47,319 nucleotides of DNA, taken from NCBI GenBank assembly GCA_016218045.1, contig JACRFB010000021.1:1-47319 (forward strand), written 5' to 3'. Positions 2,860 to 32,055 of this stretch are shown here, in pieces. The stretch's first letter is position 1. Every line of letters begins with the position of its first letter. The notes under the pieces are model-generated. The model ran no database searches, was not told the origin of the DNA, and saw only the letters and a program-made list of their open reading frames with translations. Source of the stretch: Ignavibacteriota bacterium. GTDB taxonomy: Bacteria; Bacteroidota; Ignavibacteria; SZUA-365. The translations under genes were made by a program, and so were the position numbers.

Positions 2860-4560
2860 TCAGAAGCGCACGCTGATGTCGGTGAACAGGCGCGCGGTGG
2901 CGCCGCTGCTTTCCCAGGCCTGTTCGAAGCCGGCGGTGCCGAAGACCACGCGGCCGATGCGCGCGTAGAGGTCGATGCCGAGAGTCGAGCGTGTGATGGC
3001 GCGCGCGGGTGATGTGAACGAATACGAAAAGGTCTGCACACGCACCGACAGCGTCAGCGCCTGGAGTATCTCGCGGTTCAGCTCGAAACCGACGGAACGC
3101 GATGTGCTCAGGATGTTGTCGGCGATGGAGGCGTTTGCGTAGAGATTCGTTTCGGACGACAGCACGTCGGCCCAGGTGTACCGCAGCGACAGCGCGTTGG
3201 CCGTGCCGGCTTCGCCGTCACGCGCGCGCAACGATCCCGTGGCCGACACAAACATCGCCATCGGCAGATTCACGCCCGCGCTCACCTGCGTGTCGTGCTG
3301 CCGACGCTTGTCGAAACTGCTGTCGGGGATTGCGCCAAAGCTGCGCAGGTAGTACACGTTGCGTCGCGAGGCCACCGAGCCGTTTAACGACAGCCAGCGC
3401 AACGCCCGCCAGCTCGCGGAAAGGAAGATGTCGCTGAGATGCGGCGACGAGGCGACACCCTGCGGCGCGCTGTCGTACATGTCGATGGAGGCGTTCTGGT
3501 ATATCGAGATGCCCTCGGCGAACGCGAGGGTGTTCTGCAGATAGATGAAACCGCGGTCGAGCGCGCCGCCTTTGTAGGTCTGCGCAAAAGCCGCGCCGCC
3601 CTGATATCGCGTGCTCTGCCAGTCGCCCCGCGTGTACGACACAAACAGGGCGGCCTTAGGGTCGTCGGTGTTGACTTCTGATTCGCGGTAGCCGGGTTGT
3701 GATCCGGCCGCGATACCCGCTTCCCAGCCGGCGCTGCGGCCGATCATCATCGCGCCGTCGAAGGTGCCGACGCCGCCGACCTGCGGCGCAAGGAAACGTC
3801 CGAGTGTCGCGGAGAAGGGCGCGTCCATGCCGCCGTATTCGGCCGCGAGCTGGAAGATGCGGTTCGTCAGACGCGCACCTGCGTTGCTCGAGCGCAGCGC
3901 GGCGTCGCGCGCGTCGTAGCGGTGATTCGAGTACAGGGTGAACTGCAGGGGCAGCGCGAAGAGATGGTCCGCCGAGAACTGAAGCGAGAGCGCGGGCTGG
4001 CTGAAGGCGAGCGCCGTCGTGCCGCTGCCGCGCAACGCGTAGTATTGCACTGAGACCCTTCCGCGCACGGTGTTGTCGGCCGGTGCCTCCTGCCGTGGGC
4101 GCTGCGCGAGAGGGGATGCCACGGCGGGGATCGTCTGTGTACCACCCGCGCGGGTTGTGTCGTCTCGCACCGTCCCGGCGGCCGCGGTGTCGAGCGGGAC
4201 GCGCGGACGCATGTCGGGCGCTGCGCGACGCGGTGTCCCGTCCACCTTGTCGCCGTCCGCCAGTGGACCGTTCTTCACCAGTATACGCGTCGCCATCGAC
4301 CGCGACGACACGCTGGTCACCACCAGCACCGCCAGCGTTGTTTCCTTCTTTGTCACGCGTAATGTGTCGCCGACATCGAAACCCTGATTGGTGCCCATAC
4401 TGACGTACACGGACGCGCTTGTCACATAGGTGATCTCACCCGACACCCGTGAGGGCTGCGCAGCGGCGCGCGTGGCGAACAGCACACACAGGCACACAAC
4501 CGGGAAGACGCGGCGCGCGTATCGTGCCGCGCGCCGTGCCGGTATCGCAGGAACCCGCAT
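2860..4560 (-). CDS. outer-membrane beta-barrel protein, putative porin partner of the multiheme cytochromes
   Basis: The 566-residue protein begins with a basic N-region and a hydrophobic signal peptide cleaved near residue 35 (ATRAAAQ). Residues about 38-108 look like an SH3-like, FlgT-type domain (SVYVSMGTNQGFDVGDTLRV ... LADGDKVDG). A Pro/Thr/Arg-rich linker follows. From about residue 165 to the end there are many alternating amphipathic strands rich in Tyr, Phe and Ser, and the last residue is Phe after DISVRF, as in beta-barrel proteins inserted by BAM. The start codon lies 2 nt after the stop of the giant cytochrome gene, so the two are translationally coupled. By position it may be the pore of a porin-cytochrome conduit, analogous to MtrB/OmbB, but I see no clear sequence similarity to those families. 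Confidence 0.75.
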   Translation of the reverse strand: MRVPAIPARRAARYARRVFPVVCLCVLFATRAAAQPSRVSGEITYVTSASVYVSMGTNQGFDVGDTLRVTKKETTLAVLVVTSVSSRSMATRILVKNGPLADGDKVDGTPRRAAPDMRPRVPLDTAAAGTVRDDTTRAGGTQTIPAVASPLAQRPRQEAPADNTVRGRVSVQYYALRGSGTTALAFSQPALSLQFSADHLFALPLQFTLYSNHRYDARDAALRSSNAGARLTNRIFQLAAEYGGMDAPFSATLGRFLAPQVGGVGTFDGAMMIGRSAGWEAGIAAGSQPGYRESEVNTDDPKAALFVSYTRGDWQSTRYQGGAAFAQTYKGGALDRGFIYLQNTLAFAEGISIYQNASIDMYDSAPQGVASSPHLSDIFLSASWRALRWLSLNGSVASRRNVYYLRSFGAIPDSSFDKRRQHDTQVSAGVNLPMAMFVSATGSLRARDGEAGTANALSLRYTWADVLSSETNLYANASIADNILSTSRSVGFELNREILQALTLSVRVQTFSYSFTSPARAITRSTLGIDLYARIGRVVFGTAGFEQAWESSGATARLFTDISVRF

Positions 4561-4562
4561 TG

Positions 4563-7500
4563 TTACGGTTCCCTCCCGTCGGGATGGCAGCCGCTGTTGG
4601 CGCAGGCGGTGCAGTTGTACGTGTAGCCGCTGACGCCCTGATGATCACCGTTCAGACTCGACTGATTGTTGTGACAGCCGGTGCAGCAGAAGGTGCTGGT
4701 GACGTTGGTGGTGTGGCACTGGTTGCAGTTGGACCAACGGTTCGGGTACGCGTGTTTTGATCCCGTGTATATCGGGAATCCCGTCGGCGCGTTCACGTTG
4801 TGTGATGTGCGGAACGGCGTCGCGGGCGACCATGCGGTCTGCGTGTGACAGGTCGTGCACGTGTGGCTGAGGTTCAGAGCGGAGTGATTCGCCGGAGTCG
4901 TCGCGCCGGTGAAGTCCGACTGATGGCATTGCCAGCAGCCCGTGTACGTCAGCGAGTAATTGCCGTTGATGTGGCAGTCGGCGCAGGGTTTGCCGATGTG
5001 TGCGCCCGCCAGCGGGAAGGCGGTGTTGGCGTGATTGAAGGTGGATGGTTTCCACGCGCTCTGCGTGTGGCATTGTGTGCAGGTGTGCGAGAATTGCGCC
5101 GTCACGTGGTTCGGATTCGTCACAGATTGATAGTCGCTCTGATGACACTGCCAACAGTCGGTGTAGGTCAGCGTGTAATTGCCGTTGGTGTGACACGCGT
5201 TGCACGGCTGTGCCTGATGCGCTCCCTGCAGCGGGAAGTTTGTCGCGGCGTGTGAAAATGTCGACGGCGTCCACGTGATCTGTGTGTGGCAGGTGAGGCA
5301 GGTCGTCGGGAATTGATTTGTCACATGCGCGGGATTGGTCGTTGAATTGTATGCGGACTGATGGCAGGTGATACAGCCGGAATACACGAGCTGGTAATTT
5401 CCGCCGACATGGCAGTCCTGGCAGGGCTTCGATTGATGCGCGCCCTGCAGCGGGAAGGCCGTTGTGGCGTGGTCGAAGGTGGCCGGTTTCCACGCGGACT
5501 GCGTGTGACACGAGAGACAGTCGTGGCTGAACTGTCCGGCGCTGTGACTCGGATTTGTGGTCGCGTTGAATGTTGTCTGATGGCACTGCCAGCAGTCCTG
5601 ATACTTCAGCGTGTAATTGCCGTTCACATGGCATTGCTGGCAGGGGACGGCCACATGTCCGCCCTGCAGCGGGAACGCGGTGCTGTTGTGGTTGAATGTC
5701 GACGGTTTGTACGAGATCTGTGTGTGGCACTTCAGACAGTCATGGCTGAATTGACCGGCCACATGATCCGGCGTTTTGGTCTGCTGGAACGAAGTGCTGT
5801 GGCAGGTGTAACACCCGGTATAGGTGAGCTGGTAATTGCCGTTGATGTGGCAGCGCTCGCAGGCCAGCGGCGTGTGCGCCCCCTCGAGTGGGAAGGCCGT
5901 GCTGCCATGGCTGAATGTGGCGGGTTTCCAGCCGTTGCTGCTGTGGCACTTCGTACAGTCGTTCGGGAATTTGCCCGCGGTGTGATCGGGATTTTTCGCG
6001 TTGACAAAATCGGTGTTGTGGCACTGCGCGCAGTCGGTGTAGGTGAGCTGGTAGTTGCCGTTCACATGGCAGCGTTCACACGCGACTCCCGTGTGTTTGC
6101 CGCTCAGAGGGAAGCGCGTTTTGTTGTGGTCCAGCACCGACGGTTTCCACGCACTGGTGGTGTGGCAGATGGAGCAATCGTGCGAGAACTTGCTCGACAC
6201 GTGATTGGGCGTCAGCGCCGTGTTGAACTCCTGAGTGTGGCACGCAAAACAATCCGTGTACTTCAGCGTGTAATTGCCGTTTGTGTGGCAGCTCTGGCAG
6301 GGCTCGGTCTGATGTCGGCCCGTGAGCGGGAAGGCGGTCGCGGCGTGGTCGAAAGTCGCGGGTTTCCAAGCGGTGTTCGTGTGGCAGGTCTTGCAGTCGC
6401 GCGGGAAGCCTCCGGCCGTATGGTCGGGCTGTTTCGCGCCCGAAAAATCCTGCTGATGACACTGCAGGCAGTCGGTGTATTTCAGCGTGTAGTTGCCGTT
6501 TGTGTGGCAGCTCTGGCACGGGACCGTGTTATGCGCGCCCTCGAGACGGAAATTCGTGCTTGTGTGATCGAACGTCGAGGGCTTCCAAGCCGAGACGGTA
6601 TGGCACTGCTGACAGTCGCGCGGGAATTGTGCAGTGCTGTGATTCGGGGCGGTGGTGGCGTTGTAGTCGGAGAGATGGCACTGCGCGCAGTCGGTGTACG
6701 TGAGCGAGTAATTCCCGTTGATATGGCACGACTGGCAGGGCTCGGCGCTGTGCGCTCCGGTCAGCGGGAATTTTGTTGTCGCATGGTTGAAAGTGGACGG
6801 CTTCCACGCGCTCACGCCATGACATTTGGTGCAGTCGTGATCGAAGCGCGCGGCGGTGTGATCGGGCGTGCGTGTCGCGGTGAAGTCGCGCTCGTGACAC
6901 TGGAAACAATCAGTGTAGGTGAGTGTGTAATTGCCGTTGACGTGGCACGACTGGCAGGGCTCTGCGCGATGCGCGCCCTCGAGCGGAAACTTTGTCGTTG
7001 TGTGATCGAAGCTCGCGGGTTTCCATCCTGCGGTGGTGTGGCAATCCTGGCAACTGTGCGGGAACTGTCCCGTGGTGTGATCGGGATTGCGTGTCTGCTG
7101 GAAGGTGGTCTGATGGCAGGTGAAACAGTCGGTGGGCAGCGGCACGCCATACTGTCCGTTGGTATGGCACTTCTCGCAGGCAACGGTGCGGTGCAGGCCT
7201 GTGAGCGGGAATCGCGTGCGGTCGTGATCGAGGCGTGTGGGTTTCCATGCGTCGACGCCGTGGCACATGGTACAGTCGTGGTTGAACTGGCCCTGCACGT
7301 GATTCGGCTGCGTCACTCCCGTGTAGTTCTTCTCGTGACACGACCAGCAGTCGGTTGCCATGCCGCTGTACTTGCCGTTGATGTGGCACTGTTCACAGGC
7401 CGCGGTTTTGTGTTTGCCGAGCAGCGGGAATCGTGTGTTGTCGTGGTTCACGGTCGAGGGTTTCCACGCTGCGTTGCCGTGGCAGCGCGTGCAGTCGTGA

Positions 7501-9623
7501 TCGAACTGCCCCGAGACGTGGCTGGGTGTGACAACGGCGTCGAAGTCCTTTTTATGGCAGGACCAGCAGTCCATGGGCGTGCCGGTGAACACGCCGTTTG
7601 TGTGGCAGTCCTGGCACGGAGCCGCGGTGTGTGCACCCTGCAGCGGGAAACGGGTGGTGGCATGGTCGAACAGCGCGGGTTTCCACGCGGTCTCGGAGTG
7701 GCATTTCCAGCACTCGCGCGGGAACTGCCCGGCCTTGTGATCGGGCGCCGTCACCTTGTCGTAATCGGGTTGGTGGCAGCCCGCGCATTCGAGAGGTCTG
7801 CCCGTGTATGCTCCGGCGGGATGGCAACTTTCGCAGGGCACCGCGGCGTGCGCGCCACGCAGCGGGAACTGCGTCTTGGCATGGTCCAGTGTCGCGGGCT
7901 TCCACGCGGTTTCGGTGTGACAGCGCGTGCAGTCGTGCGGGAACTGCGCCTTCACATGCGCGGGCTGCAGCGACGCGGTGTAGTCCTTCTCGTGACACTG
8001 CCAGCAGTCGGTGTAGGCGAGCCGGTAGTTGCCGCCCACGTGACAGTTGGCGCATGGCACGGTGCTGTGCGCGCCGCGCAGCGGAAACTTGGTGCTGCCA
8101 TGATCGAAGGTCGCGGGTTTCCAGCCGGCCATGGTGTGGCAGGAGAGGCAGTCGTGTTCGAACATTCCCGCCGCGTGATCGGGATTTGTGGCTCCCCGGA
8201 AATCGCGCTCATGACAGACGAAACACTCGGTGGGTGTGCCGCCGAACACCTTGTTCACATGGCAGCGGTCGCAGGCCACCGCGGCGTGCGCTCCCTCGAG
8301 CGGGAAACGCGTGCGGTTGTGATCGATGCTGCGCGGCATTGTTTCGACGGGCTGCCAGGCGGTGGTGTTGTGGCACAGCGCGCACTGCCGCGTGAAACCG
8401 ACCTGGTCGTGTTTTGGTTTGCTGGTCTGAAGGAAGTTCTGTTCGTGACAACCCTGACAGTCGAGCGGCAGGCCCGAGTATTTCCCGCCGATGTGGCATT
8501 TCTCGCAGAAGGTCTGCCGGTGCGCGCCCGTGAGCGGAAAGTTCGTGTTGTCGTGTTTGAAGGCGGCCGGCTTCCACGCGGTGAGTGTGTGGCAGTCGGT
8601 GCACTGCTGCGAGAACTGCCCCTGCGCGTGATTCGGGAAGGTCGTGCCGCGGTAGTCGTTCTGATGGCAGCTCCAGCAGTCCTTCGGCAGCTTGCCGTAG
8701 CCGCTCGTGTGGCACTGTGCGCAGGGTGTTGCGGCATGCGCGCCCTGCAGGGGGAAGCCGCTTTTGTTGTGGTCGAAACGCGCTGGTTTCCAGTGCACCG
8801 GATCATGGCACACGGTGCAGTTCCGGTCGAAACTGCCCGCAGCGTGATCGGGCTGTTTTACCGATGCGTAGTCGCGCTGGTGACAGCCGTAGCAGTCGGT
8901 GGGTGTGTTCCGATACCCGGAGGTGTGACACTGGCCGCAGGCGAGCCGCAGATGCGCGGGTGTGCTCATGAAGGGCACGGGCGGATGGGTGAAACTGCCG
9001 CTCCATGACCCTGCCGCGGCATCGTGGCAGCGCGCGCACTGATGGTCGAAATTGTTCTTGGCGTGATCGGGTTCACCCACGGCCGCGTACTCGGCCTTGT
9101 GGCATTCATAACAATCGGTGGGTGTCCCCGCGTACTCGCGTGTCTGCTGTGTCGCATGACACGCAGCACAGTCGGCCGCGGCATGCGCGCCGAGCAGGGG
9201 GAAACGTGTGAGCTGATGTTTGGCCACCTGCTCGTTCGGCGCGCGCCATCCGGCAGGCGTGTGACAGTCGCGGCAGCGGTTGCCGAACTCGCCCTTGTGG
9301 AAATCCTTGTGGCAGGACAGGCAGTCCTTTTTCAGATCCTTGAATGACACGGCACCATGGCACGAGGCGCAGGGCACGGACGCGTGTCGCCCGTTGAGCA
9401 CGTAGCCGGTGAGTTTGTGATCAAATTCGGCGGATTTTTTGATCGTCTTCCACGACTCGGTGGTGTGACAATTCATGCACGGGATGCCGAAACTGCGATG
9501 TGGACTCGCACCCGCGGGTGTCTGCGCCGCCGTGCGAACCGACAGCAAAAAGGAGCCGAGGAGGAGTATCCCCAGCGCCGTCAGGGCGTATGTCCGCAAG
9601 TGTGCCGTACCTTTCCTCGTCAT
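4563..9623 (-). CDS. giant periplasmic/exported multiheme cytochrome c with 66 CXXCH motifs
   Basis: The 1686-residue product has a signal peptide (about 1-34, ending SVRTAAQ). I count 66 CXXCH heme-attachment motifs: 4 in an N-terminal segment, 60 in 20 consecutive units of about 73 residues with three motifs each, and 2 near the C-terminus, plus one CX4CH (CANSGCH). Each unit has the order CXXCH, DCXXCH, a PDH, CXXCH, AWKP-FDH, then T-FPL-GAH. The three extra histidines in PDH, FDH and GAH could be the distal ligands, making all hemes bis-His. Units resemble the paired-CXXCH/cytochrome c3-C7 superfamily. The ATG at 9623 follows a GAGGA Shine-Dalgarno; an upstream ATG at 9749 would add a non-signal leader overlapping the previous gene. 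Role inferred: long-range electron wire between inner membrane and the downstream barrel. Substrate unknown. Confidence 0.92.
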   Translation of the reverse strand: MTRKGTAHLRTYALTALGILLLGSFLLSVRTAAQTPAGASPHRSFGIPCMNCHTTESWKTIKKSAEFDHKLTGYVLNGRHASVPCASCHGAVSFKDLKKDCLSCHKDFHKGEFGNRCRDCHTPAGWRAPNEQVAKHQLTRFPLLGAHAAADCAACHATQQTREYAGTPTDCYECHKAEYAAVGEPDHAKNNFDHQCARCHDAAAGSWSGSFTHPPVPFMSTPAHLRLACGQCHTSGYRNTPTDCYGCHQRDYASVKQPDHAAGSFDRNCTVCHDPVHWKPARFDHNKSGFPLQGAHAATPCAQCHTSGYGKLPKDCWSCHQNDYRGTTFPNHAQGQFSQQCTDCHTLTAWKPAAFKHDNTNFPLTGAHRQTFCEKCHIGGKYSGLPLDCQGCHEQNFLQTSKPKHDQVGFTRQCALCHNTTAWQPVETMPRSIDHNRTRFPLEGAHAAVACDRCHVNKVFGGTPTECFVCHERDFRGATNPDHAAGMFEHDCLSCHTMAGWKPATFDHGSTKFPLRGAHSTVPCANCHVGGNYRLAYTDCWQCHEKDYTASLQPAHVKAQFPHDCTRCHTETAWKPATLDHAKTQFPLRGAHAAVPCESCHPAGAYTGRPLECAGCHQPDYDKVTAPDHKAGQFPRECWKCHSETAWKPALFDHATTRFPLQGAHTAAPCQDCHTNGVFTGTPMDCWSCHKKDFDAVVTPSHVSGQFDHDCTRCHGNAAWKPSTVNHDNTRFPLLGKHKTAACEQCHINGKYSGMATDCWSCHEKNYTGVTQPNHVQGQFNHDCTMCHGVDAWKPTRLDHDRTRFPLTGLHRTVACEKCHTNGQYGVPLPTDCFTCHQTTFQQTRNPDHTTGQFPHSCQDCHTTAGWKPASFDHTTTKFPLEGAHRAEPCQSCHVNGNYTLTYTDCFQCHERDFTATRTPDHTAARFDHDCTKCHGVSAWKPSTFNHATTKFPLTGAHSAEPCQSCHINGNYSLTYTDCAQCHLSDYNATTAPNHSTAQFPRDCQQCHTVSAWKPSTFDHTSTNFRLEGAHNTVPCQSCHTNGNYTLKYTDCLQCHQQDFSGAKQPDHTAGGFPRDCKTCHTNTAWKPATFDHAATAFPLTGRHQTEPCQSCHTNGNYTLKYTDCFACHTQEFNTALTPNHVSSKFSHDCSICHTTSAWKPSVLDHNKTRFPLSGKHTGVACERCHVNGNYQLTYTDCAQCHNTDFVNAKNPDHTAGKFPNDCTKCHSSNGWKPATFSHGSTAFPLEGAHTPLACERCHINGNYQLTYTGCYTCHSTSFQQTKTPDHVAGQFSHDCLKCHTQISYKPSTFNHNSTAFPLQGGHVAVPCQQCHVNGNYTLKYQDCWQCHQTTFNATTNPSHSAGQFSHDCLSCHTQSAWKPATFDHATTAFPLQGAHQSKPCQDCHVGGNYQLVYSGCITCHQSAYNSTTNPAHVTNQFPTTCLTCHTQITWTPSTFSHAATNFPLQGAHQAQPCNACHTNGNYTLTYTDCWQCHQSDYQSVTNPNHVTAQFSHTCTQCHTQSAWKPSTFNHANTAFPLAGAHIGKPCADCHINGNYSLTYTGCWQCHQSDFTGATTPANHSALNLSHTCTTCHTQTAWSPATPFRTSHNVNAPTGFPIYTGSKHAYPNRWSNCNQCHTTNVTSTFCCTGCHNNQSSLNGDHQGVSGYTYNCTACANSGCHPDGREP
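4930..9200. repeat. approximately 219-bp tandem repeat inside the giant cytochrome gene, 20 units
   Basis: At the DNA level the cytochrome gene is a satellite of about 219-bp units, visible for example as ATTGCCGTTGATGTGGCA near 4960 and its near copy near 5178. Units nearest the 3' end of the gene (lower coordinates) are most alike, with NGNY-L-YTDC in nearly every copy. Units near the 5' end (higher coordinates) diverge and have shorter forms such as GTPTDC. This gradient suggests recent tandem expansion towards the C-terminus. Confidence 0.85.
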
Positions 9624-9700
9624 GGCGGTCCTCGTAATTCTGGATGCAATGGAGTGAAAATATCCATTTATTGTGTCGCCGGTGAGGGGAAAAGTATTCC

Positions 9701-11389
9701 TCATTGCATTTTTTTCTCTGTGTCGGATGCCGGATGACAGGTTGCGCAATCCGGATCGATGGGTTTGTAGCGCACAATGCCGCCGGATTCACCGGCAGTG
9801 GCTCGGTGACAGGCGGAGCAGGCAAGCGCCGCGTGGCGCCCGTTGAGCTGGAAACGCGAGTCGCGGGTGTGGTCGAAGGTGCTCGGTTTCCATTCACCGG
9901 TGCTGTGGCAGCGTTCGCAGGTCACGGTTCCGTTCACAACAAACTGTCCGCCGTGCGGATCGGTGTGGCAGCTCGCGCAGGTGATGCTGTCGAAGGTGAA
10001 GCGGCGTGTTTGCGCGCCGCCTATTTCCACGCTGCCGTGGCACTTGTCGCAGGGCACGGCCAGGTGTTTGCCGCGCAGGGGGAAGTCGGTCGCGGCATGA
10101 TCGAATTCCATCGAGTGCCAGCTCGCGGTGCTGTGGCAGCCGTTGCAGGCGCCCTTGTCGGGACGTTTCAGGAATTGTCCCGCGTGATAATCGCTGTGAC
10201 AGGATGTACACGCGAGGTCGGTCCAGCGGAATCGCCGCACGGGTGTGCCGTCTCGAGTCTCCGTTGTGTGACAACGGTCGCAGGCCACCGCGGCATGTGC
10301 GCCTTCGAGGGGGAATCGTGTGGTGGCATGGTCCGGCTGCTCGAAGCGCGAGGGGTGGAAACCGTCCACCGTATGGCATCGTGAACATTCCGTGCCGCCT
10401 CGCGCCTGGGCGAATTGCCCGGCATGCGCGTCCGCATGGCACAGCAGGCACGATCCGAGTTCCTTGTTGCGGTATTTCGCGATATCTCCGCCAACGTGAC
10501 ACTTGGCGCAGGCCAGCGACGCGTGCCGGCCTTGCAGCGCGAAGCGAGTCTTTGAATGGTCGAACCCCGCGTTCGAGGACAGGCGTACGGACTTCCAGCT
10601 CTCCGGCGTGTGACACTGTGCGCAGTCCTTCCCGAACTGCCCCTTGTGTTTGTCTTCGTGGCAGTCGCCGCACGTTTTGAAGGCGAGTCCGTGTAATTTC
10701 ATGGCCGCCATGCCCGTGCCCGTGGCTCCCGGCAGGGGAGGATGGCATTTTGTGCAGGCCACGTCGGCATGTTTTCCAAGCAGAGGGAAACGTGCGCGGG
10801 AATGTGTGAAGCTGTTCTGCTTCCAGTCCGCGGGCGTGTGGCAGCGCGCGCAGTCGCTGCCGAGCTGTCCGGCGTGTCCGTCGGTATGGCAGTTGATGCA
10901 CGCGGGTTCGAGGCCCAGGTATGTGCGCTGCTTCGCCGCCGCGCTCTTGCCGCGGATCTCCTTCTGCACAATGTTTTTTGGGATGTGGCAGGCGCGGCAT
11001 TCCTTTCCGGCATGTTTTCCAACGAGTTCAAAACCCGCTTGCCGGTGATCGAATTTTGCGGGGTCCCAACGGATCAGCTTGAAGTCGCGTCCGTGATGTT
11101 CCTTGTGGCAGGCCGAACACTCGAGTTTTTTTGTGAAGGCGTGATACCCGAGTCCGCGCTCCACACGTGAACGGATCTCCGCATGACAGGCGAGGCAGTT
11201 GACGCGCACGCTCTTGTCGCCGAAGTTATGGCACTTCGCGCAGTCGTTCACTCCGTCGAGTGCAGCGTGAACGGTTGAGAGTTTCCCTGGTGAAACGAGC
11301 TGGCTATGCAGCGTTGGCGCGTATCCGGCCAGCAGGAAAGCGAGCAGAACCGCCGGCAGCGGTCGCAGAGTTATATCGGATCCGCGCAT
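9701..11389 (-). CDS. 20-heme cytochrome c
   Basis: The 562-residue protein carries a signal peptide (PAVLLAFLLAGYAPTLHSQ) and 20 CXXCH motifs that I can count. Several segments share the FDH-x-FPL-G-H-x-CXXCH spacing of the giant cytochrome encoded next, so the two are probably related; others have an alternative HADAHAGQF / HEDKHKGQF spacer between motifs. I placed the start at the ATG at 11389, directly before the signal peptide and 7 bp after the upstream gene's stop; an ATG at 11434 would overlap that gene by 38 bp. It is likely a periplasmic electron carrier between the membrane protein encoded upstream and the giant cytochrome 77 bp downstream. No catalytic domain (nitrite, sulfite or hydroxylamine reductase) is recognisable. 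Confidence 0.9.
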   Translation of the reverse strand: MRGSDITLRPLPAVLLAFLLAGYAPTLHSQLVSPGKLSTVHAALDGVNDCAKCHNFGDKSVRVNCLACHAEIRSRVERGLGYHAFTKKLECSACHKEHHGRDFKLIRWDPAKFDHRQAGFELVGKHAGKECRACHIPKNIVQKEIRGKSAAAKQRTYLGLEPACINCHTDGHAGQLGSDCARCHTPADWKQNSFTHSRARFPLLGKHADVACTKCHPPLPGATGTGMAAMKLHGLAFKTCGDCHEDKHKGQFGKDCAQCHTPESWKSVRLSSNAGFDHSKTRFALQGRHASLACAKCHVGGDIAKYRNKELGSCLLCHADAHAGQFAQARGGTECSRCHTVDGFHPSRFEQPDHATTRFPLEGAHAAVACDRCHTTETRDGTPVRRFRWTDLACTSCHSDYHAGQFLKRPDKGACNGCHSTASWHSMEFDHAATDFPLRGKHLAVPCDKCHGSVEIGGAQTRRFTFDSITCASCHTDPHGGQFVVNGTVTCERCHSTGEWKPSTFDHTRDSRFQLNGRHAALACSACHRATAGESGGIVRYKPIDPDCATCHPASDTEKKMQ

Positions 11390-11396
11390 CCTGTTC

Positions 11397-12398
11397 TCAG
11401 AATATCCACTTGTATCCCAGCGAGACGGTGACACCCACGTGAATCGCGAGAATCACGAACATGATGATCGCAAAGGGCAGATGTATGACGTGCCAGTAGT
11501 GGAAGATTTCACGCGCGCTGTCGAGGAAGGCGATGCGCCGCTCGAGTAGGGAGCGCTTCCGCGCCACCCGCATGATGGCGGCTGCGCGGTCGTGCTCCAC
11601 GCCGCGCTCGCGGAGGTGTGCACGCAATGCGCGTGTGCGCAGCCAGCGGGTAGAGTCGTCCCTCAACACGGCGAATAATGCGCGGAGTACGCTCGTGTCA
11701 CTCCGGCGTATGGTGTTTAAGCCGTCGATCCAGGCCATGGTGGCTGCGTCGAGTCCGTAGGTGTTCTGCAATTCTTCGCGCAGGGCCTCGTCCTCGGCGG
11801 CAAGTTCGTCCATGCCGCGCTCGTTGCCCTCGATGGTGCGCGGAATCTGGGTGTACACGTAGCGGCCGAGCAGTCCGCTCAGCGCCACGAAGATCATGCT
11901 CCACGCGGCGATCGAAACGAGTCCGCCGAACTTGAATGTGGTGTGGAGAAGCACCAGGGACGGGCCGAGCAGGCAGAGGAATATGTGCGCCTCGAGCCAG
12001 TGACGGATCTTGCCCGCGAAGCGCAGGCGCCTCAGCCGTTTGCGCGTCGAGTACATCGCCACACCGACGGTCATCATCAGCGATCCGATCACGCCAAGAC
12101 CGTGCCCGATCGGACCGCCGGCCTGCCAGTCGAGCCAATAGCGGAGCTGCGCTCCGAGACGCTCCTTCTCCGCAAGCAACTCCGCCTCCGATTTTTCGGA
12201 GGAACTCAGTCCTTGCGCGCGCATCTCGAGTTCGACGTCGATTTCGGACATTTTCGAGTCGAGATCCGCTTCGAGTACGTCGATTTCGCTCTGCGGGGTG
12301 ATGAAGTAGCGGAAACCCTGGTATCCGTACCACGATGTTGTAACGATACCAAGCGTAAAAAGGGAAACGATCCAGATCCGATGCACGGATGGAGACAT
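11397..12398 (-). CDS. polytopic His-rich membrane protein, possible b-type cytochrome / quinol oxidase module
   Basis: The 333-residue protein has about five hydrophobic helices: one near the N-terminus (IWIVSLFTLGIVT), a coiled charged stretch (about 38-85), then GHGLGVIGSLMMTVGVAMY, AHIFLCLLGPSLVLLHTTF, IAAWSMIFVALSGLLGRYVY, a soluble charged region (about 185-285) and a final YWHVIHLPFAIIMFVILAIHVGV helix. Histidines in helices two, three and five are placed as heme b ligands might be, which would suit electron transfer from menaquinol to periplasmic cytochromes. I do not recognise a named family, so this role is inferred from context: it is the first gene of the cytochrome cluster. The start was set at ATG 12398; an ATG at 12473 would add 25 residues reaching the edge of the upstream repeat. 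Confidence 0.7.
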   Translation of the reverse strand: MSPSVHRIWIVSLFTLGIVTTSWYGYQGFRYFITPQSEIDVLEADLDSKMSEIDVELEMRAQGLSSSEKSEAELLAEKERLGAQLRYWLDWQAGGPIGHGLGVIGSLMMTVGVAMYSTRKRLRRLRFAGKIRHWLEAHIFLCLLGPSLVLLHTTFKFGGLVSIAAWSMIFVALSGLLGRYVYTQIPRTIEGNERGMDELAAEDEALREELQNTYGLDAATMAWIDGLNTIRRSDTSVLRALFAVLRDDSTRWLRTRALRAHLRERGVEHDRAAAIMRVARKRSLLERRIAFLDSAREIFHYWHVIHLPFAIIMFVILAIHVGVTVSLGYKWIF

Positions 12399-12477
12399 AG
12401 TGTCTGGCGTGTTGTGGCGTGAATAATTCGCGAAGCGATCATACAGTATACGAACTCTGAACCGGATTTCCATCAGC

Positions 12478-12615
12478 GGGATAGCGGAAGAGCGGGACAG
12501 CGGGACAGCGGGAGAGCGGGACAGCGGGACAGCGGGAGAGAGGGACAGCGGGAGAGAGGGACAGCGGGAGAGAGGGACAGCGGGAGAGCGGGACAGCGGG
12601 AGAGCGGGACCTGTT
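12478..12615. repeat. octamer array (GGGACAGC / GGGAGAGC)
   Basis: About 17 consecutive 8-bp units alternate between GGGACAGC, GGGAGAGC and GGGAGAGA. The array sits in the divergent gap between the cytochrome cluster and the iron-sulfur flavoprotein gene. Related octamer tracts lie at 1-200, 2815-2860, 29315-29520 and 47181-47198. Confidence 0.9.
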
Positions 12616-12622
12616 CACAAAA

Positions 12623-12726
12623 TTCACCTTCCACTTTCCACTTTTCACCTTCCACTTCACACCATATATCTTCCACTCTTCACAATCCATCTTTCATCTT
12701 TCATTTTTCACCTTCTACCTTCAGAA
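12623..12726. repeat. heptamer array (TTCACCT / TCCACTT)
   Basis: From 12623 the sequence divides cleanly into 7-mers: TTCACCT, TCCACTT, TCCACTT, TTCACCT, TCCACTT, then degenerate members including TCCACTC, TTCACAA, TCCATCT, TTCATCT, TTCATTT, TTCACCT and TCTACCT. One strand is almost pure pyrimidine plus A. It fills the promoter side of the gene at 12771. A possible -10-like TATATA lies just after it (about 12734-12739). Confidence 0.85.
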
Positions 12727-12770
12727 TTCTGTTATATATTCCCACTTTCACAATCAACCCGGTCTGCGTC

Positions 12771-14108
12771 ATGGAAAGCTTCTTCATTTTTCTCGTTTTT
12801 GTGATTTTGGTTTTTGCCACAGTCATCCCGTATATGCGGGTGGTGAAACGCAAGGAGGCCAAGGCGCGAGAGGCAGCCGGTCTCGGAGCGCTGCACAGCA
12901 GCGGACCCCGCGCGCAGCACCCGCGCATCGATATCAGTCAATGTATCGGCTGCGGCGCCTGTGTGGACGCCTGCCCCGAGGGTGATGTGCTGGGTGTGAT
13001 CGCGGGCAAGGCCGCCATCATAAACGGTCACAAGTGTATCGGGCACAGTCTCTGCGCGGACGCCTGCCCGGTCGGCGCCATCACCATCGTCATGGCGTCG
13101 CCCAGCATCGGCGCCGATATGCCGCAGCTCACGGAGGAATTCGAGACCAATGTTCCCGGTATGTATATCATCGGCGAACTCGGCGGTCTCGCCCTTGTGA
13201 AAAATGCGGTGAATCAGGGCCGCGACTGTATCGACGGCATACATCGTCGGCTCGAGAGTACAGGTCGGACGGGCGGTGCGGACGTCGCCGATGTGTGTAT
13301 TGTCGGAGCCGGACCGGGAGGTATCTCGGCCTCTCTCCGCGCCATCGAAAATAAACTCTCGTATGTCACGCTCGAACAGGACGAGCTGGGCGGCACTGTT
13401 GCCAAGTATCCACGGCAGAAGCTCGTGATGACGAGTCCCGTCGAATTTCCCCTGCACGGCAAATTCCGCAAGCTGGAGCTGAGCAAGGAGGAACTTCTCG
13501 CGTTCTGGCATGAGGTCGCCGCGAAGTCGGGTCTCGAGGTGCGCACACAGGAGCGTGTCGAAACGATACACCGCGACGACGCGGGCATCTTTACCATCCG
13601 CAGCATAAAGGGCGAATTCCGCGCGCGCACCGTGGTTCTGGCACTGGGCCGCCGCGGTACGCCGCGCACACTCGGCGTCCCGGGTGAGCAGCTTCCGAAA
13701 GTGATGTACAGTCTCATCGAGGCCGACGCGTACACACATGCGCGCATCCTCATCGTCGGCGGAGGTGATTCCGCCGTCGAGGCGGCCATGGGGCTCGCAC
13801 ATCAAAAGGGGAATCAGGTCACACTCTCGTACCGGAAGGACGCATTTTCGCGCATCAAAGAAAGAAACACGCAGAGGATCAAGGAGTGTATGGATAACGG
13901 GACGGTGCGTGTGCTCTTCGAGTCCGCCCCGGTCGAAATCACCGAAACAGCCGTGCTTCTCGACATCAACGGGCGGCCAGAAACGCTGGACAACGACTAT
14001 GTGTGGATTTTTGCCGGCGGTATTCCGCCCAACGACTTCCTCACCAGCGTCGGCATCGTACTCGGACCGCGCGACATGACCAGGGAAGCCCAGAACGCAT
14101 TGCTTTAA
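12771..14108 (+). CDS. membrane-anchored ferredoxin-domain FAD/NAD(P) oxidoreductase
   Basis: The 445-residue protein has an N-terminal membrane helix (about 4-24), then a ferredoxin-like domain with cysteines C58, C61, C64 and C68 (CIGCGACVDACP) and a second set C89, C95 and C99 in which the expected second cysteine is His92 (CIGHSLC). A two-dinucleotide-fold flavoprotein follows: GAGPGG near residue 182 for FAD and GGGDSA near residue 329 for NAD(P)H, with the ALGRRGTPR segment between. There is no thioredoxin-reductase CXXC, so it resembles the YpdA-like branch fused to a ferredoxin. It probably moves electrons between NAD(P)H, its clusters and a membrane partner. Being divergent from the cytochrome cluster, it may be the cytoplasmic entry point of that chain (inference). 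Confidence 0.8.
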   Translation: MESFFIFLVFVILVFATVIPYMRVVKRKEAKAREAAGLGALHSSGPRAQHPRIDISQCIGCGACVDACPEGDVLGVIAGKAAIINGHKCIGHSLCADACPVGAITIVMASPSIGADMPQLTEEFETNVPGMYIIGELGGLALVKNAVNQGRDCIDGIHRRLESTGRTGGADVADVCIVGAGPGGISASLRAIENKLSYVTLEQDELGGTVAKYPRQKLVMTSPVEFPLHGKFRKLELSKEELLAFWHEVAAKSGLEVRTQERVETIHRDDAGIFTIRSIKGEFRARTVVLALGRRGTPRTLGVPGEQLPKVMYSLIEADAYTHARILIVGGGDSAVEAAMGLAHQKGNQVTLSYRKDAFSRIKERNTQRIKECMDNGTVRVLFESAPVEITETAVLLDINGRPETLDNDYVWIFAGGIPPNDFLTSVGIVLGPRDMTREAQNALL

Positions 14109-29809: not shown

Positions 29810-30502
29810 TTACGGAAACTTTTTTGCTAATCCAATATAGAATCCATTGCTGTCATGTGATGGATTCCTTTCCACACCGCTTGTATTCCCATTTGAAACA
29901 TGAACATGTCTCAGCCCGAATAAAATTGAATAGCTGTCACACGCCCGGATCTCTGTACCAATTCCATATTTGGTCATACCATTTACTGTGGTTCCTACTC
30001 GTGCATCCCGGTCCGTCGGCTGTGGAAATTCGTTAAAAAAGTATGACAGACCCCCTCCGGATTCAAAAAACAACGTCATCCGATCGTTGTTGAGAAAATA
30101 GAAACGTGCAAAGGGAATAACGGATAGTCCCAGCGTCCTGTTGAAATTGTCGGTGGGATATAAAACATTAAACTCTAATCCCATTGACATAAAATCACGT
30201 AATAAATAATTTAATCCCGTACTGTTTTTAAAAAGGAAAGTGCCGGGATATTTATATCCCCACGAGCATCCCAATTCATTAAACACTTCAAGTCTCTGTG
30301 AAAGTGCGGGATTGTTTTCGGTCACCAGCAGGCAAATGCCGACAACACCGGCGGGCACTATAAATCCCATGGACGTATGGAGCTTCAGCGGCTCAAATCC
30401 CAAGGGATTATCATACCAATGATCTCCCACCGCATACTGCGGGAAAGCCCTGCCCGGGAGCAGAAATAGCAGGACCAAAACAATCTGGACGTGTTTTTTC
30501 AA
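29810..30502 (-). CDS. PagL-like lipid A 3-O-deacylase / acyloxyacyl hydrolase
   Basis: The 230-residue product (from TTG 30502) looks like an outer-membrane PagL-family beta-barrel: signal peptide KKHVQIVLVLLFLLPGRAFPQ, then strands ending with the catalytic HxSNG motif in RHVHVSNGNTSGVERNPS and a final YIGLAKKF strand. PagL removes a 3-O-linked acyl chain from lipid A. TTG 30502 was preferred because it sits just before the signal peptide with AAGGA upstream; ATG 30580 would add 26 odd residues. Base composition is visibly more AT-rich than in neighbouring genes, and repeats flank it on both sides, suggesting acquisition. The barrel is aromatic-rich, in keeping with the family. Confidence 0.75.
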   Translation of the reverse strand: MKKHVQIVLVLLFLLPGRAFPQYAVGDHWYDNPLGFEPLKLHTSMGFIVPAGVVGICLLVTENNPALSQRLEVFNELGCSWGYKYPGTFLFKNSTGLNYLLRDFMSMGLEFNVLYPTDNFNRTLGLSVIPFARFYFLNNDRMTLFFESGGGLSYFFNEFPQPTDRDARVGTTVNGMTKYGIGTEIRACDSYSILFGLRHVHVSNGNTSGVERNPSHDSNGFYIGLAKKFP

Positions 30503-30535
30503 CCTGTTGCTTCCTTCAGACGTTCCGTACCGACA

Positions 30536-30543
30536 CAAACCTA
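30536..30543 (-). promoter_or_regulatory. Bacteroidota-type -7 box (TAGGTTTG)
   Basis: On the minus strand TAGGTTTG fits the TAnnTTTG -7 consensus of Bacteroidota sigma factors and lies about 33 nt before the TTG start of the PagL-like gene. No matching -33 TTTG was found, so this is tentative. Confidence 0.3.
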
Positions 30544-30936
30544 CACCATTCTCCTCGATTTCGCGAGTGAGAAAATTCATCAGCGTAGAAATCCATCCTT
30601 AGGTTCAAGAATCTAGTACAATGGGTAAGTGGAGAAATTCCGTATCCTGGATCCAATGATGTACACACGATTGTAAAAAAGAACAAAAAAATACTTGTTC
30701 TCGCCCGGTTGTGAGGAAATGCTCAGCTGATATTGCCAATGAGGCAAAAGAGTCAAGCGTGTACAATCAGCCGGGAAATACGGTATTATGCCGTGAAACA
30801 GGAACGATAATCGGTTTTCAAGCGCTAGAGGGGAGTACGGCTTGCGCCATTTCCCGGCAATCGAGCTCTGCACTGGATATTTCTCTTTTTTTCTTCTACA
30901 ACACAGATATCTAGCGTTTGTATACACTGTTCGCAA

Positions 30937-31997
30937 CCGACAAACAACAGTACCACAGGTCAGCACACCGCTCGAATCCGGCAACACACGATGCAAGATG
31001 TCGAAAGCGGTGTTCGAGTCGGACGCTCGGCATTCCCATCCGCATCGCACATCCACCAATTCCAATAACACACACTGCTATTGTAGGAAAATGCTCGTAC
31101 CGTCGGACGAACGGTAGTACCAGCCGGACAAATCGCTGCCTGACTCGCACAAAACACCACCCAAATCCGACAATACGAACACCCAAGCGCGGAAAACGGA
31201 GTCTGCGTCGGACGAACTGAGTCCCGCGCTGGATAACCAGCACCTTCACTCTGACGATACGCTCTTCGAAGTTCGTGAAACACTCTTCGCGGCCGTCAAA
31301 TGGATCTTCTAAGCCGGCAACCAACACCTTCACTCTGACGAAACGCTCTTCGAAGTTCGTGAAACACTCTTCGCGGTCGACAAACGGTAATTCTACGCCG
31401 ACAGCCGGCAGTTTCACTCTGACAAAACGCTCTTCGCAGCCCGTGAAACGTACTTCGCGGCTGACAAACGGTGCTTCCATTCCGCGAAAAAGGAGTTTGC
31501 AGCGGACAAAAAGTACTTCGCGAGTTCGGTGCCTATATGTGCAGGTTCGTTGCGAGTACTCTCACACGTGTTTCCGCACTTTGTGAGTTCTGTCACAGGA
31601 GTCTCAATTGTGGAACCGGTGTTTGTGACTTCGGTGCGCAGACTCTGCGACTTCGTTACAGGACCTGTAAACACCGCTTCCGTAGTCTGCGAGTTCGGCA
31701 CCATAGTGTACAAGGGCGTCACATACATTGTGACTTCGGTAACACTACTCCGCGACTTTGTCACCGGTCTCTGCGACTTTGTTACCGTACTCTGCGAGTT
31801 CGCTTCAGTACATATTTGTGGTGTTCGCGTGGTGTGAGTTCAGTCACCGGGTTCTGCAACTTCGGTTACAACACTCTGCGAGTTCGTTCCGGTCATGAAA
31901 AATCGTGTCACCGATCTCTTCAAGTTCGTTCACATACTCTCAATCGTGTTTCCGCACTTCGCAAGTTCGGTCACAAGAGTTGTATCGCGTGTCACCA
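30937..31997. repeat. degenerate 21-bp-period array, about 50 units in two inverted halves
   Basis: From 30937 to 31524 the DNA can be cut into 28 consecutive 21-mers of the type TGACAAAACGCTCTTCGCAGC, for example at 31336, 31357, 31420, 31441 and 31462. From 31525 to about 31990 similar units read the other way, of the type TTYGTYACnGnnCTCTGCGAG, with lengths of 18-22 averaging near 21. Read outward from 31524, both halves begin each unit with TTYGTY. Several short open frames inside (heptad peptides such as FVxxEER and FVTxLCD) exist on both strands, which shows that the DNA period, not one protein, is the conserved feature. Composition is more AT-rich than the genes around it. 30503-30936 shows no gene or repeat I can name. 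Confidence 0.8.
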
Positions 31998-32055
31998 TAC
32001 TATGTTTTTCACATTCCGGCAACAAAAAATAATGGAGTACTTGCTCCTGTACCGC

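What the first reader, a model, noticed from the sequence alone, without database searches (positions are those of the whole stretch)
2860..14108. Candidate trans-envelope electron conduit: flavoprotein, membrane protein, 20-heme and 66-heme cytochromes, beta-barrel
Four genes on the minus strand are packed with 2-77 bp gaps and cover every compartment: inner membrane (His-rich helices), periplasm (20 and 66 hemes) and outer membrane (barrel with N-terminal SH3-like domain). A divergent membrane-anchored ferredoxin/FAD/NAD(P) protein could link it to the cytoplasm. The gene content does not match the MtrCAB, OmbB-OmaB-OmcB or PioAB layouts I know, so it may be a separate kind of porin-cytochrome system.
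Basis: inference. Interest (0 to 1): 0.85.

Follow-up and report, generated by a model that had tools for sequence, protein, structure and literature searches.

The report
NADPH-linked giant-cytochrome electron conduit (PCC3-like)
This bacterium carries a set of genes that looks like a complete electrical wire running from the inside of the cell to its outer surface, a known but untested type of wire found here in a new group of bacteria and with an extra cytoplasmic 'plug' that probably draws electrons from NAD(P)H.

Summary
A 566-aa outer-membrane barrel, a 66-heme cytochrome, a 20-heme cytochrome and a His-rich membrane protein lie on the minus strand with 2-77 bp gaps, beside a divergent TM/ferredoxin/FAD/NAD(P) flavoprotein. 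The set is a real module: in 395 phylum genomes the barrel occurs in 38 and the full-length flavoprotein in 39, always with the membrane protein (40).

It is not a new kind of conduit. The membrane protein has the PCC3/PCC4 signature of He et al. 2017: five TM helices, WX3HX13H on TM3 and TM5, SGXXG on TM4. The set matches PCC3, whose function is untested in print. New here: the host group (Ignavibacteria and other Bacteroidota), an obligate flavoprotein partner, a fixed 20/23-heme cytochrome beside one that grows in three-heme steps, and a complete copy on a plasmid of a cultured type strain.

Best reading: NAD(P)H -> FAD -> two Fe-S clusters -> two hemes b -> 20 hemes -> barrel and giant cytochrome, not fed by quinol. 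Function and direction are inferred.

The parts
2860..4560 (-). outer-membrane beta-barrel protein, 566 aa; signal peptide, small N-terminal beta domain (residues 39-108), disordered linker (115-158), barrel (165-566)
   Evidence: ORF; AlphaFold2 model (22 long strands); PDB fold matches to OM barrels; found only with the rest of the module
4563..9623 (-). giant c-type cytochrome, 1686 aa, 66 CXXCH (25.5 aa per heme), Sec-type signal peptide, no lipobox seen
   Evidence: Pfam Cytochrome_C7 / Cytochrom_CIII
4821..8993 (-). 19 tandem three-heme units of 73 aa (57 of the 66 hemes) inside the giant cytochrome
   Evidence: mean identity 49% between neighbours, 41% between others; DNA identity at most 67%, so old repeats and not an assembly artefact
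9701..11389 (-). 20-heme periplasmic-type cytochrome, 562 aa, 28 aa per heme
   Evidence: DmsE-like stretch; 20 hemes in 78 of 97 complete relatives, 23 in 11
11397..12398 (-). inner-membrane protein, 333 aa, five TM helices, predicted diheme cytochrome b (PCC3/PCC4-type IMP)
11943..11999 (-). TM3 motif W134-X3-H138-X13-H152, predicted ligands of the two hemes b
   Evidence: H138 and H152 invariant in 75 of 75; motif
11865..11879 (-). TM4 SGXXG motif (S174-G178)
   Evidence: 75 of 75 relatives
11439..11495 (-). TM5 motif W302-X3-H306-X13-H320
   Evidence: invariant in 75 of 75; motif
12771..14108 (+). membrane-anchored flavoprotein, 445 aa: N-terminal TM helix, 2x[4Fe-4S] domain, FAD/NAD(P) domain related to YpdA and thioredoxin reductases
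12942..13067 (+). ferredoxin-like motifs C58-x2-C61-x2-C64-x3-C68 and C89-x2-H92-x2-C95-x3-C99; H92 invariant
   Evidence: H92 in 30 of 30; C61 is Cys in 7 of 30 (Ser in 17)
13284..14075 (+). FAD/NAD(P)-binding domain without conserved Cys
   Evidence: Pfam; no Cys column at 50% or more outside the Fe-S motifs

Best explanation
It is a PCC3-type trans-envelope electron conduit with a built-in cytoplasmic electron entry. Inferred route: NAD(P)H gives electrons to the FAD of the membrane-anchored flavoprotein. Its two Fe-S clusters pass them to the cytoplasmic-side heme b of the five-helix membrane protein. The periplasmic-side heme b passes them to the 20-heme cytochrome, which bridges the periplasm. 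From there they go through or into the 22-strand barrel and onto the giant cytochrome, which extends the conductive surface at or beyond the outer membrane. Shown here: the gene set, its obligate co-occurrence, the cofactor motifs, the predicted barrel fold, the fixed heme number of one cytochrome and the three-heme growth of the other. Inferred: direction (outward), NAD(P)H rather than quinol as donor, location of the giant cytochrome, and the acceptor (metal oxide, humic substance, electrode or partner cell).
For: Co-occurrence of barrel, flavoprotein and membrane protein in 395 genomes. All five genes in 23 of 26 and 32 of 32 neighbourhoods of at least 19.9 kb, two partly overlapping sets. 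Two H-X13-H pairs in 75 of 75, SGXXG in 75 of 75, two full WX3HX13H in 63 of 75, the PCC3/PCC4 IMP signature. DUF4405 matches in 34 of 75 members, best E 8.9e-6; purified DUF4405 binds heme b (passages of PMC11334425). Flavoprotein: six invariant Cys plus invariant His92 in the Fe-S domain and no conserved Cys in the FAD/NAD(P) domain, so not a thiol-disulphide reductase; the basic stretch after the TM helix puts the redox domains in the cytoplasm. Distant membrane-protein relatives on two proteobacterial plasmids lie between an FAD/NAD/[2Fe-2S] reductase and a 7-heme cytochrome, an independent case of flavoprotein + cytochrome b + multiheme cytochrome. A CcmH-like TPR gene in many relatives and a CcsA/ResB gene next to the Emticicia copy fit cytochrome c maturation.
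Against: The membrane protein's predicted fold has no significant PDB match (best Foldseek E 0.43; VIA-align Z about 10 to ABC exporters, within the range of common helical arrangements), so the cytochrome b reading rests on motifs. hhalign against DUF4405 gave E 0.035 and probability 1.5. Neither cytochrome has a convincing lipobox (4 of 69 and 4 of 57 loose matches), so surface anchoring of the giant cytochrome is not shown. No expression, redox or localisation data. He et al. proposed a quinone link for the same membrane-protein type. Emticicia, an aerobe as I recall it, also has the module, so dissimilatory metal reduction cannot be the only use.
Confidence: 0.62

Rival explanations
1. PCC3 as He et al. 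drew it: the membrane protein is a quinone-active cytochrome b, and the flavoprotein is a second, optional electron input or regulator.
For: Quinone model proposed for PCC3/PCC4 IMPs from their likeness to bc1 cytochrome b. Proteobacterial PCC3 is described as four genes without a flavoprotein.
Against: In this phylum the full-length flavoprotein is present in 39 of 40 genomes with the membrane protein; the exception, G151, has only fragments of the membrane protein and barrel. Two proteobacterial relatives of the membrane protein also neighbour an NAD(P)H-type flavoprotein.
Confidence: 0.2
2. Electron uptake: the conduit takes electrons from outside (Fe(II), another cell, a cathode) and the flavoprotein makes NAD(P)H.
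For: PCC3 was found in Fe(II) oxidisers and modelled as inward. Multiheme conduits can run both ways (statement in PMC10734462 for Mto/Mtr).
Against: Reducing NAD(P)+ with Fe(II) electrons is strongly uphill, and no energy-coupling subunit is seen in the module. Most carriers are heterotrophic-type lineages (Ignavibacteria, Prolixibacteraceae, Saprospiraceae names; lifestyle recalled).
Confidence: 0.12
3. No trans-outer-membrane function: the barrel is a substrate porin and the cytochromes are a periplasmic electron store or serve assimilatory ferric, selenite or other oxyanion reduction.
For: No lipobox on the cytochromes. The barrel's best fold matches are substrate channels and siderophore receptors. 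ExtI shows that a porin in a cytochrome cluster can serve selenite reduction and not Fe(III) reduction (passages of PMC5877670).
Against: One obligate barrel per module, always with a many-heme cytochrome pair in the long neighbourhoods. 66 hemes in one chain exceed any simple reductase need.
Confidence: 0.15

Closest known systems
PCC3 (He et al. 2017, PMC5566968; Gallionellaceae survey PMC10734462)
   Same: Porin, periplasmic cytochrome with about 21 hemes, second cytochrome of variable and very large heme number, about 300-aa membrane protein with five TM helices, two WX3HX13H and SGXXG; about 26 aa per heme (here 25.5 and 28.1)
   Different: Reported mostly from Proteobacteria as four genes. 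Here it is in Ignavibacteria/Bacteroidota, with an obligate NAD(P)-type flavoprotein and often a CcmH-like TPR gene; barrel predicted at 22 strands against up to 42 predicted in PCC3 porins. Component sequences could not be compared directly
PCC4 (same paper)
   Same: Same membrane-protein signature, other redox proteins in the cluster
   Different: PCC4 has 4-, 5- and 10-heme cytochromes and no extracellular one; the second locus in this genome (G000:C50) resembles PCC4 more
OmbB-like porin-cytochrome clusters of Ignavibacteria (PMC7399161; Shi et al. 2014, PMC4245776)
   Same: Same class; that paper's two Ignavibacteria have largest cytochromes of 40 and 33 hemes, so they may be this very module
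   Different: Ignavibacterium album cluster (IALB_1837 to IALB_1840) has a 14-heme periplasmic cytochrome; flavoprotein not mentioned in the passages read
MtrCAB / MtoAB / PioAB
   Same: Barrel plus multiheme cytochrome across the outer membrane; the 20-heme cytochrome has a DmsE/MtrA-like stretch (62.7 bits, cut-off 192.2)
   Different: No MtrB_PioB match in 51 barrels or the genome; 22 strands predicted against 26 in MtrB
OetABI and OmcKL conduits of Desulfobacterota (PMC10553843)
   Same: Barrel with periplasmic and outer cytochromes
   Different: OetB is described as an extracellular-facing lipoprotein; no flavoprotein or matching membrane protein in the passages read
NOX/FRE ferric reductases
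   Same: Works like them: NAD(P)H-FAD module feeding a transmembrane diheme b with two H-X13-H helices (parallel drawn)
   Different: Flavoprotein is a separate TrxR/YpdA-type protein with Fe-S clusters, and the acceptor is a multiheme wire; no Pfam ferric-reductase match shown for 75 members

Membership tests
PCC3 | about 300-aa IMP with five TM helices, WX3HX13H on TM3 and TM5 and SGXXG on TM4 | tested here: met
   Window: both motifs and SGXXG; relatives: two HX13H 75 of 75, SGXXG 75 of 75, two WX3HX13H 63 of 75; helices in the AlphaFold2 model; signature
PCC3 | periplasmic multiheme cytochrome with about 20 or more hemes | tested here: met
   20 hemes in 78 of 97 complete relatives, 23 in 11; location from signal peptide only
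PCC3 | second cytochrome with many and variable hemes | tested here: met
   10 to 64 hemes in 82 complete relatives, 66 in the window; 69 of 82 are 1 mod 3
PCC3 | that second cytochrome is extracellular | not testable with these tools
   No localisation data; no convincing lipobox
PCC3 | outer-membrane beta-barrel in the cluster | tested here: met
   (22 strands, pLDDT 82.5)
PCC3 | component proteins homologous in sequence to the Sideroxydans/Leptothrix ones | not tested
MtrCAB/PioAB | MtrB_PioB-family barrel by sequence | tested here: not met
   No PF11854 among the 19 families matched by 51 barrels; 0 in own genome
MtrCAB/PioAB | MtrB fold | tested here: inconclusive
   Not among the rows shown, which list many generic barrels
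OmbB-OmaB-OmcB | OmbB-family porin | tested here: inconclusive
   No OmbB-named model among NCBIfam matches of 51 barrels; whether the library holds one was not checked
NOX/FRE ferric reductase | PF01794 transmembrane domain | tested here: inconclusive
   Not among the 25 families shown of 27 that matched 75 members; two families were not shown
DUF4405 cytochromes | PF14358 match over the curated cut-off | tested here: inconclusive
   Window 17.0 bits against 26.7; 34 of 75 members match at E up to 0.1, best 8.9e-6
YpdA bacillithiol disulphide reductase | family score over cut-off and a conserved active Cys (the Cys requirement is recalled) | tested here: not met
   166.9 bits against 339.9; no conserved Cys outside the Fe-S motifs

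The most novel reading that the evidence does not exclude
A phylum-wide, quinone-independent electron exporter that works as a split NAD(P)H oxidase: a ferredoxin-bearing flavoprotein with a His-ligated Fe-S cluster drives a diheme cytochrome b and a fixed 20-heme periplasmic bridge. The bridge feeds a single-chain heme nanowire whose length evolves in three-heme steps from 10 to 66 hemes, enough at the long end to reach well past the outer membrane.
Probability: 0.35. Interest if true: 0.78.

Novelty: new variant of a known kind. Interest (0 to 1): 0.55.

Why it matters
PCC3 is widely annotated but was still called functionally unverified in 2025, and where its electrons enter is only hypothesised. 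In this phylum the module carries its own cytoplasmic entry point. That turns a vague 'relay to the quinone pool' into a concrete, testable chain from NAD(P)H to the cell surface. A complete copy on a 100-kb plasmid of a cultured type strain (Emticicia oligotrophica DSM 17448) makes plasmid curing and gene removal possible. The modular three-heme length of the giant cytochrome offers natural 'wires' of many lengths for physical study.

Tried and rejected
A new kind of porin-cytochrome system: rejected after reading sections 15-17 of PMC5566968, because the layout and membrane-protein signature are those of PCC3.

Bacillithiol or thioredoxin reductase role of the flavoprotein: rejected, no conserved Cys in that domain.

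Membrane protein as a known cytochrome b fold: sequence search of PDB found nothing relevant and fold searches gave no significant match. This leaves the heme prediction on motifs and DUF4405 likeness. The hhalign test put both His pairs of the query onto the W..H-X13-H helix of DUF4405 proteins but with probability 1.5, so it is only suggestive. MtrB was not seen among the listed fold matches of the barrel; that absence proves nothing.

Artefacts checked: recent repeat expansion or misassembly in the 66-heme gene (DNA identity between units at most 67%); chance spacing of His pairs (1 of 20,000 shuffles of the window protein has two WX3HX13H).

Lipoprotein anchoring of the cytochromes: my first count (48 of 69 for the 20-heme family) was spurious because it matched the first heme Cys; the cleaner test gave 4 of 69 and 4 of 57.

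The RelE hit of NCBIfam on the giant cytochrome was taken as an artefact of repeats. The Pseudoalteromonas plasmid hit is a different 784-aa flavoprotein in a glycosyltransferase locus and was dropped. Own-genome locus L038 was left out of the five-gene count because it is a paralogue cluster.

Not in print: I found no paper that ties a flavoprotein to PCC3 or describes PCC3 in Bacteroidota, in searches. Supplementary files could not be read, subscription papers (for example on Melioribacter roseus) are not held, and PMC7399161 may already picture this module in Ignavibacteria.
Full report
WHAT IS THERE. On the minus strand, in transcription order: membrane protein (11397-12398 if started where relatives start), 20-heme cytochrome (9701-11389), 66-heme cytochrome (4563-9623), barrel (2860-4560). 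The gaps are 7, 77 and 2 bp. Divergently, 12771-14108(+) encodes a protein with an N-terminal TM helix, two Fe-S motifs and an FAD/NAD(P) domain. The flanks are housekeeping genes by my own reading of the translations (SmpB-like and tyrosyl-tRNA-synthetase-like on one side, NusA-like and IF-2-like on the other, names recalled), so the module is self-contained.

IS IT A UNIT. The membrane protein was searched in 395 genomes of the phylum: 87 match at E up to 1e-3, of which 40 match strongly (E below 1e-30) and the rest weakly, mostly in one family of small genomes. A profile of the barrel found 38 of 395, all inside those 40; the two without are a contig-end case (G372) and a divergent one (G391). 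A profile of the flavoprotein found 50 of 395 at E up to 1e-60, of which 39 are full length with the Fe-S part and are all inside the 40. The other 11 genomes match only from about residue 121, in open frames of 783 to 910 aa, and I did not count them. The one genome without the full-length flavoprotein, G151, has only fragments of membrane protein and barrel 382 bp apart, as after a deletion.

Neighbourhoods were fetched for 33 of the other 39 strong genomes plus three of the same family (L035-L037, L039-L071). All five genes are together in 27 of 36, and in 23 of 26 stretches of at least 19.9 kb. Among 80 named loci they are together in 50 of 80, and in 32 of 32 long ones. The two sets overlap in part (for example L036 and L072 share a contig of 71,897 bases). 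Two orders are common: membrane protein - (TPR) - flavoprotein - 20-heme - giant - barrel, and membrane protein - (TPR) - 20-heme - giant - barrel - flavoprotein. The divergent flavoprotein of the window is a local variant shared with L035-L037.

WHO HAS IT. A complete copy lies on plasmid pEMTOL02 of Emticicia oligotrophica DSM 17448, with 23 and 40 hemes in the two cytochromes and a CcsA/ResB-type heme-attachment gene just upstream.

THE MEMBRANE PROTEIN. In the 75-row alignment five His are invariant. Four form two H-X13-H pairs on TM3 and TM5, each preceded by W-X3 in the window; two HX13H are found in 75 of 75, two WX3HX13H in 63 of 75, SGXXG in 75 of 75. He et al. describe the same signature for PCC3 and PCC4 inner-membrane proteins and read it as two hemes b (section 17 of PMC5566968). 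Pfam agrees weakly: DUF4405 in 34 of 75 and cytochrome b561 in 11 of 75 members; DUF4405 protein binds heme b in vitro (passages of PMC11334425). Against it, the AlphaFold2 model (pLDDT 88.9) has no significant match in the PDB. From the positive residues between TM2 and TM3 the TM4-TM5 insert of about 110 residues should face the cytoplasm (inference).

THE FLAVOPROTEIN. It is nearest to YpdA (7a7b, E 5.5e-27) and thioredoxin reductases, but 166.9 bits lie far below the YpdA cut-off and the domain has no conserved Cys. The Fe-S part has Cys in 30 of 30 at positions 58, 64, 68, 89, 95 and 99, and His92 in 30 of 30 where a ferredoxin has Cys. Position 61 is Cys in 7 of 30, Ser in 17, Thr in 5, Val in 1. 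So one cluster probably has a His ligand and the other often lacks one Cys. Two conserved Arg (355 in 30 of 30, 361 in 29 of 30) would suit NADPH; that is tentative.

THE CYTOCHROMES. The 20-heme protein keeps its number: 20 in 78 of 97 complete relatives, 23 in 11. The giant one varies: 82 complete relatives have 10 to 64 hemes and 69 of 82 are 1 mod 3 (p = 3e-21 against one third). The window's 66 is one of the exceptions. Its core is 19 units of 73 aa with three hemes each. A constant bridge and a variable extension is the simplest reading: the first spans a fixed gap (the periplasm), the second is free to grow. If hemes stack as in known wires (about 0.7-0.8 nm per heme, recalled), 66 hemes in a line would exceed the periplasm; the folded length is unknown.

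THE BARREL. AlphaFold2 gives 22 long strands after a small beta domain and a disordered linker. Fold matches are generic outer-membrane barrels: PirA and OccK7 at Z 19.1 (rmsd 4.2 over 352 and 4.4 over 277 residues), FimD by Foldseek. No sequence family matched in 51 members beyond scattered weak hits. It is therefore a real barrel of a family without a Pfam name.

MECHANISM. NAD(P)H -> FAD -> Fe-S -> heme b -> heme b -> 20 hemes -> barrel and giant cytochrome. The obligate flavoprotein is the main argument that electrons enter from the cytoplasm rather than from quinol. It is supported by proteobacterial relatives of the membrane protein on plasmids of Methylophaga pinxianii and Rhizorhabdus wittichii, each between an FAD/NAD/[2Fe-2S] reductase and a 7-heme cytochrome. 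The membrane protein there is 28% and 22% identical to the window's. Direction and acceptor are open.

WHAT IS KNOWN. PCC3 (He et al. 2017; sections 15-17 read) is four genes: porin, extracellular cytochrome (median 34 hemes, up to 85), periplasmic cytochrome (median 21) and the inner-membrane protein, mostly in Proteobacteria. In 2025 it was still called functionally unverified (passages of PMC12442390). PMC7399161 (passages and section 18 read) reports OmbB-like porin clusters in two anode-associated Ignavibacteria whose largest cytochromes have 40 and 33 hemes; these may be the same module. So this is a new variant of a known kind, and the genome scan's 'separate kind' is too strong.

LIMITS. 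No proteobacterial PCC3 sequence was available for direct comparison. No coordinates of the models could be measured. Function is untested everywhere.

Noticed in passing
L038:3993-16522 (own genome, G000:C50:12993-25522): A second locus with a paralogous membrane protein (two WX3HX13H and SGXXG), a 10-heme cytochrome, a cNMP-binding/4Fe-4S (PF13247) protein, FHA-domain proteins, one fused to a pyridine-nucleotide oxidoreductase, a 3-heme cytochrome c554 and a 1278-aa LVIVD-repeat protein with 10 hemes. It resembles PCC4 of He et al. and may be a signal-regulated version of the same circuit.
   Followed up: partly
G000:C45:115433-119722: Open frames of 759 and 926 aa that carry DUF4405 and/or Cytochrome_C7 matches close together in the same genome.
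   Followed up: no
L069 (G151:C56:46016-46985): Fragments of the membrane protein and the barrel lie 382 bp apart with no cytochromes between, apparently a deletion remnant of the module.
   Followed up: partly
L039, L045, L050 and other relatives: A gene of about 200 aa next to the membrane protein encodes a TM-anchored TPR protein like CcmH/CycH (53.5 bits against 42 in L039, below cut-off in the two others tested); TPR homologues in 20 of 36 and 30 of 80 neighbourhoods, none in the window.
   Followed up: partly
L202:3719-21297 (Emticicia oligotrophica plasmid pEMTOL02): Complete module on a plasmid of a cultured type strain, preceded by CcsA/ResB and followed by a GW-domain gene; upstream, a separate cluster of YceI, DUF5777 barrel, Rieske and cytochrome genes.
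   Followed up: partly
L203:7953-11307 and L205:7220-10576 (plasmids of Methylophaga and Rhizorhabdus): Compact three-gene clusters: FAD/NAD/[2Fe-2S] reductase, five-helix HX13H membrane protein, 7-heme cytochrome, near heavy-metal genes. They look like a minimal metal- or oxyanion-reducing version without a barrel.
   Followed up: partly
window 30001-32000: G+C drops to 48.5% in a contig of about 61% G+C; not examined.
   Followed up: no
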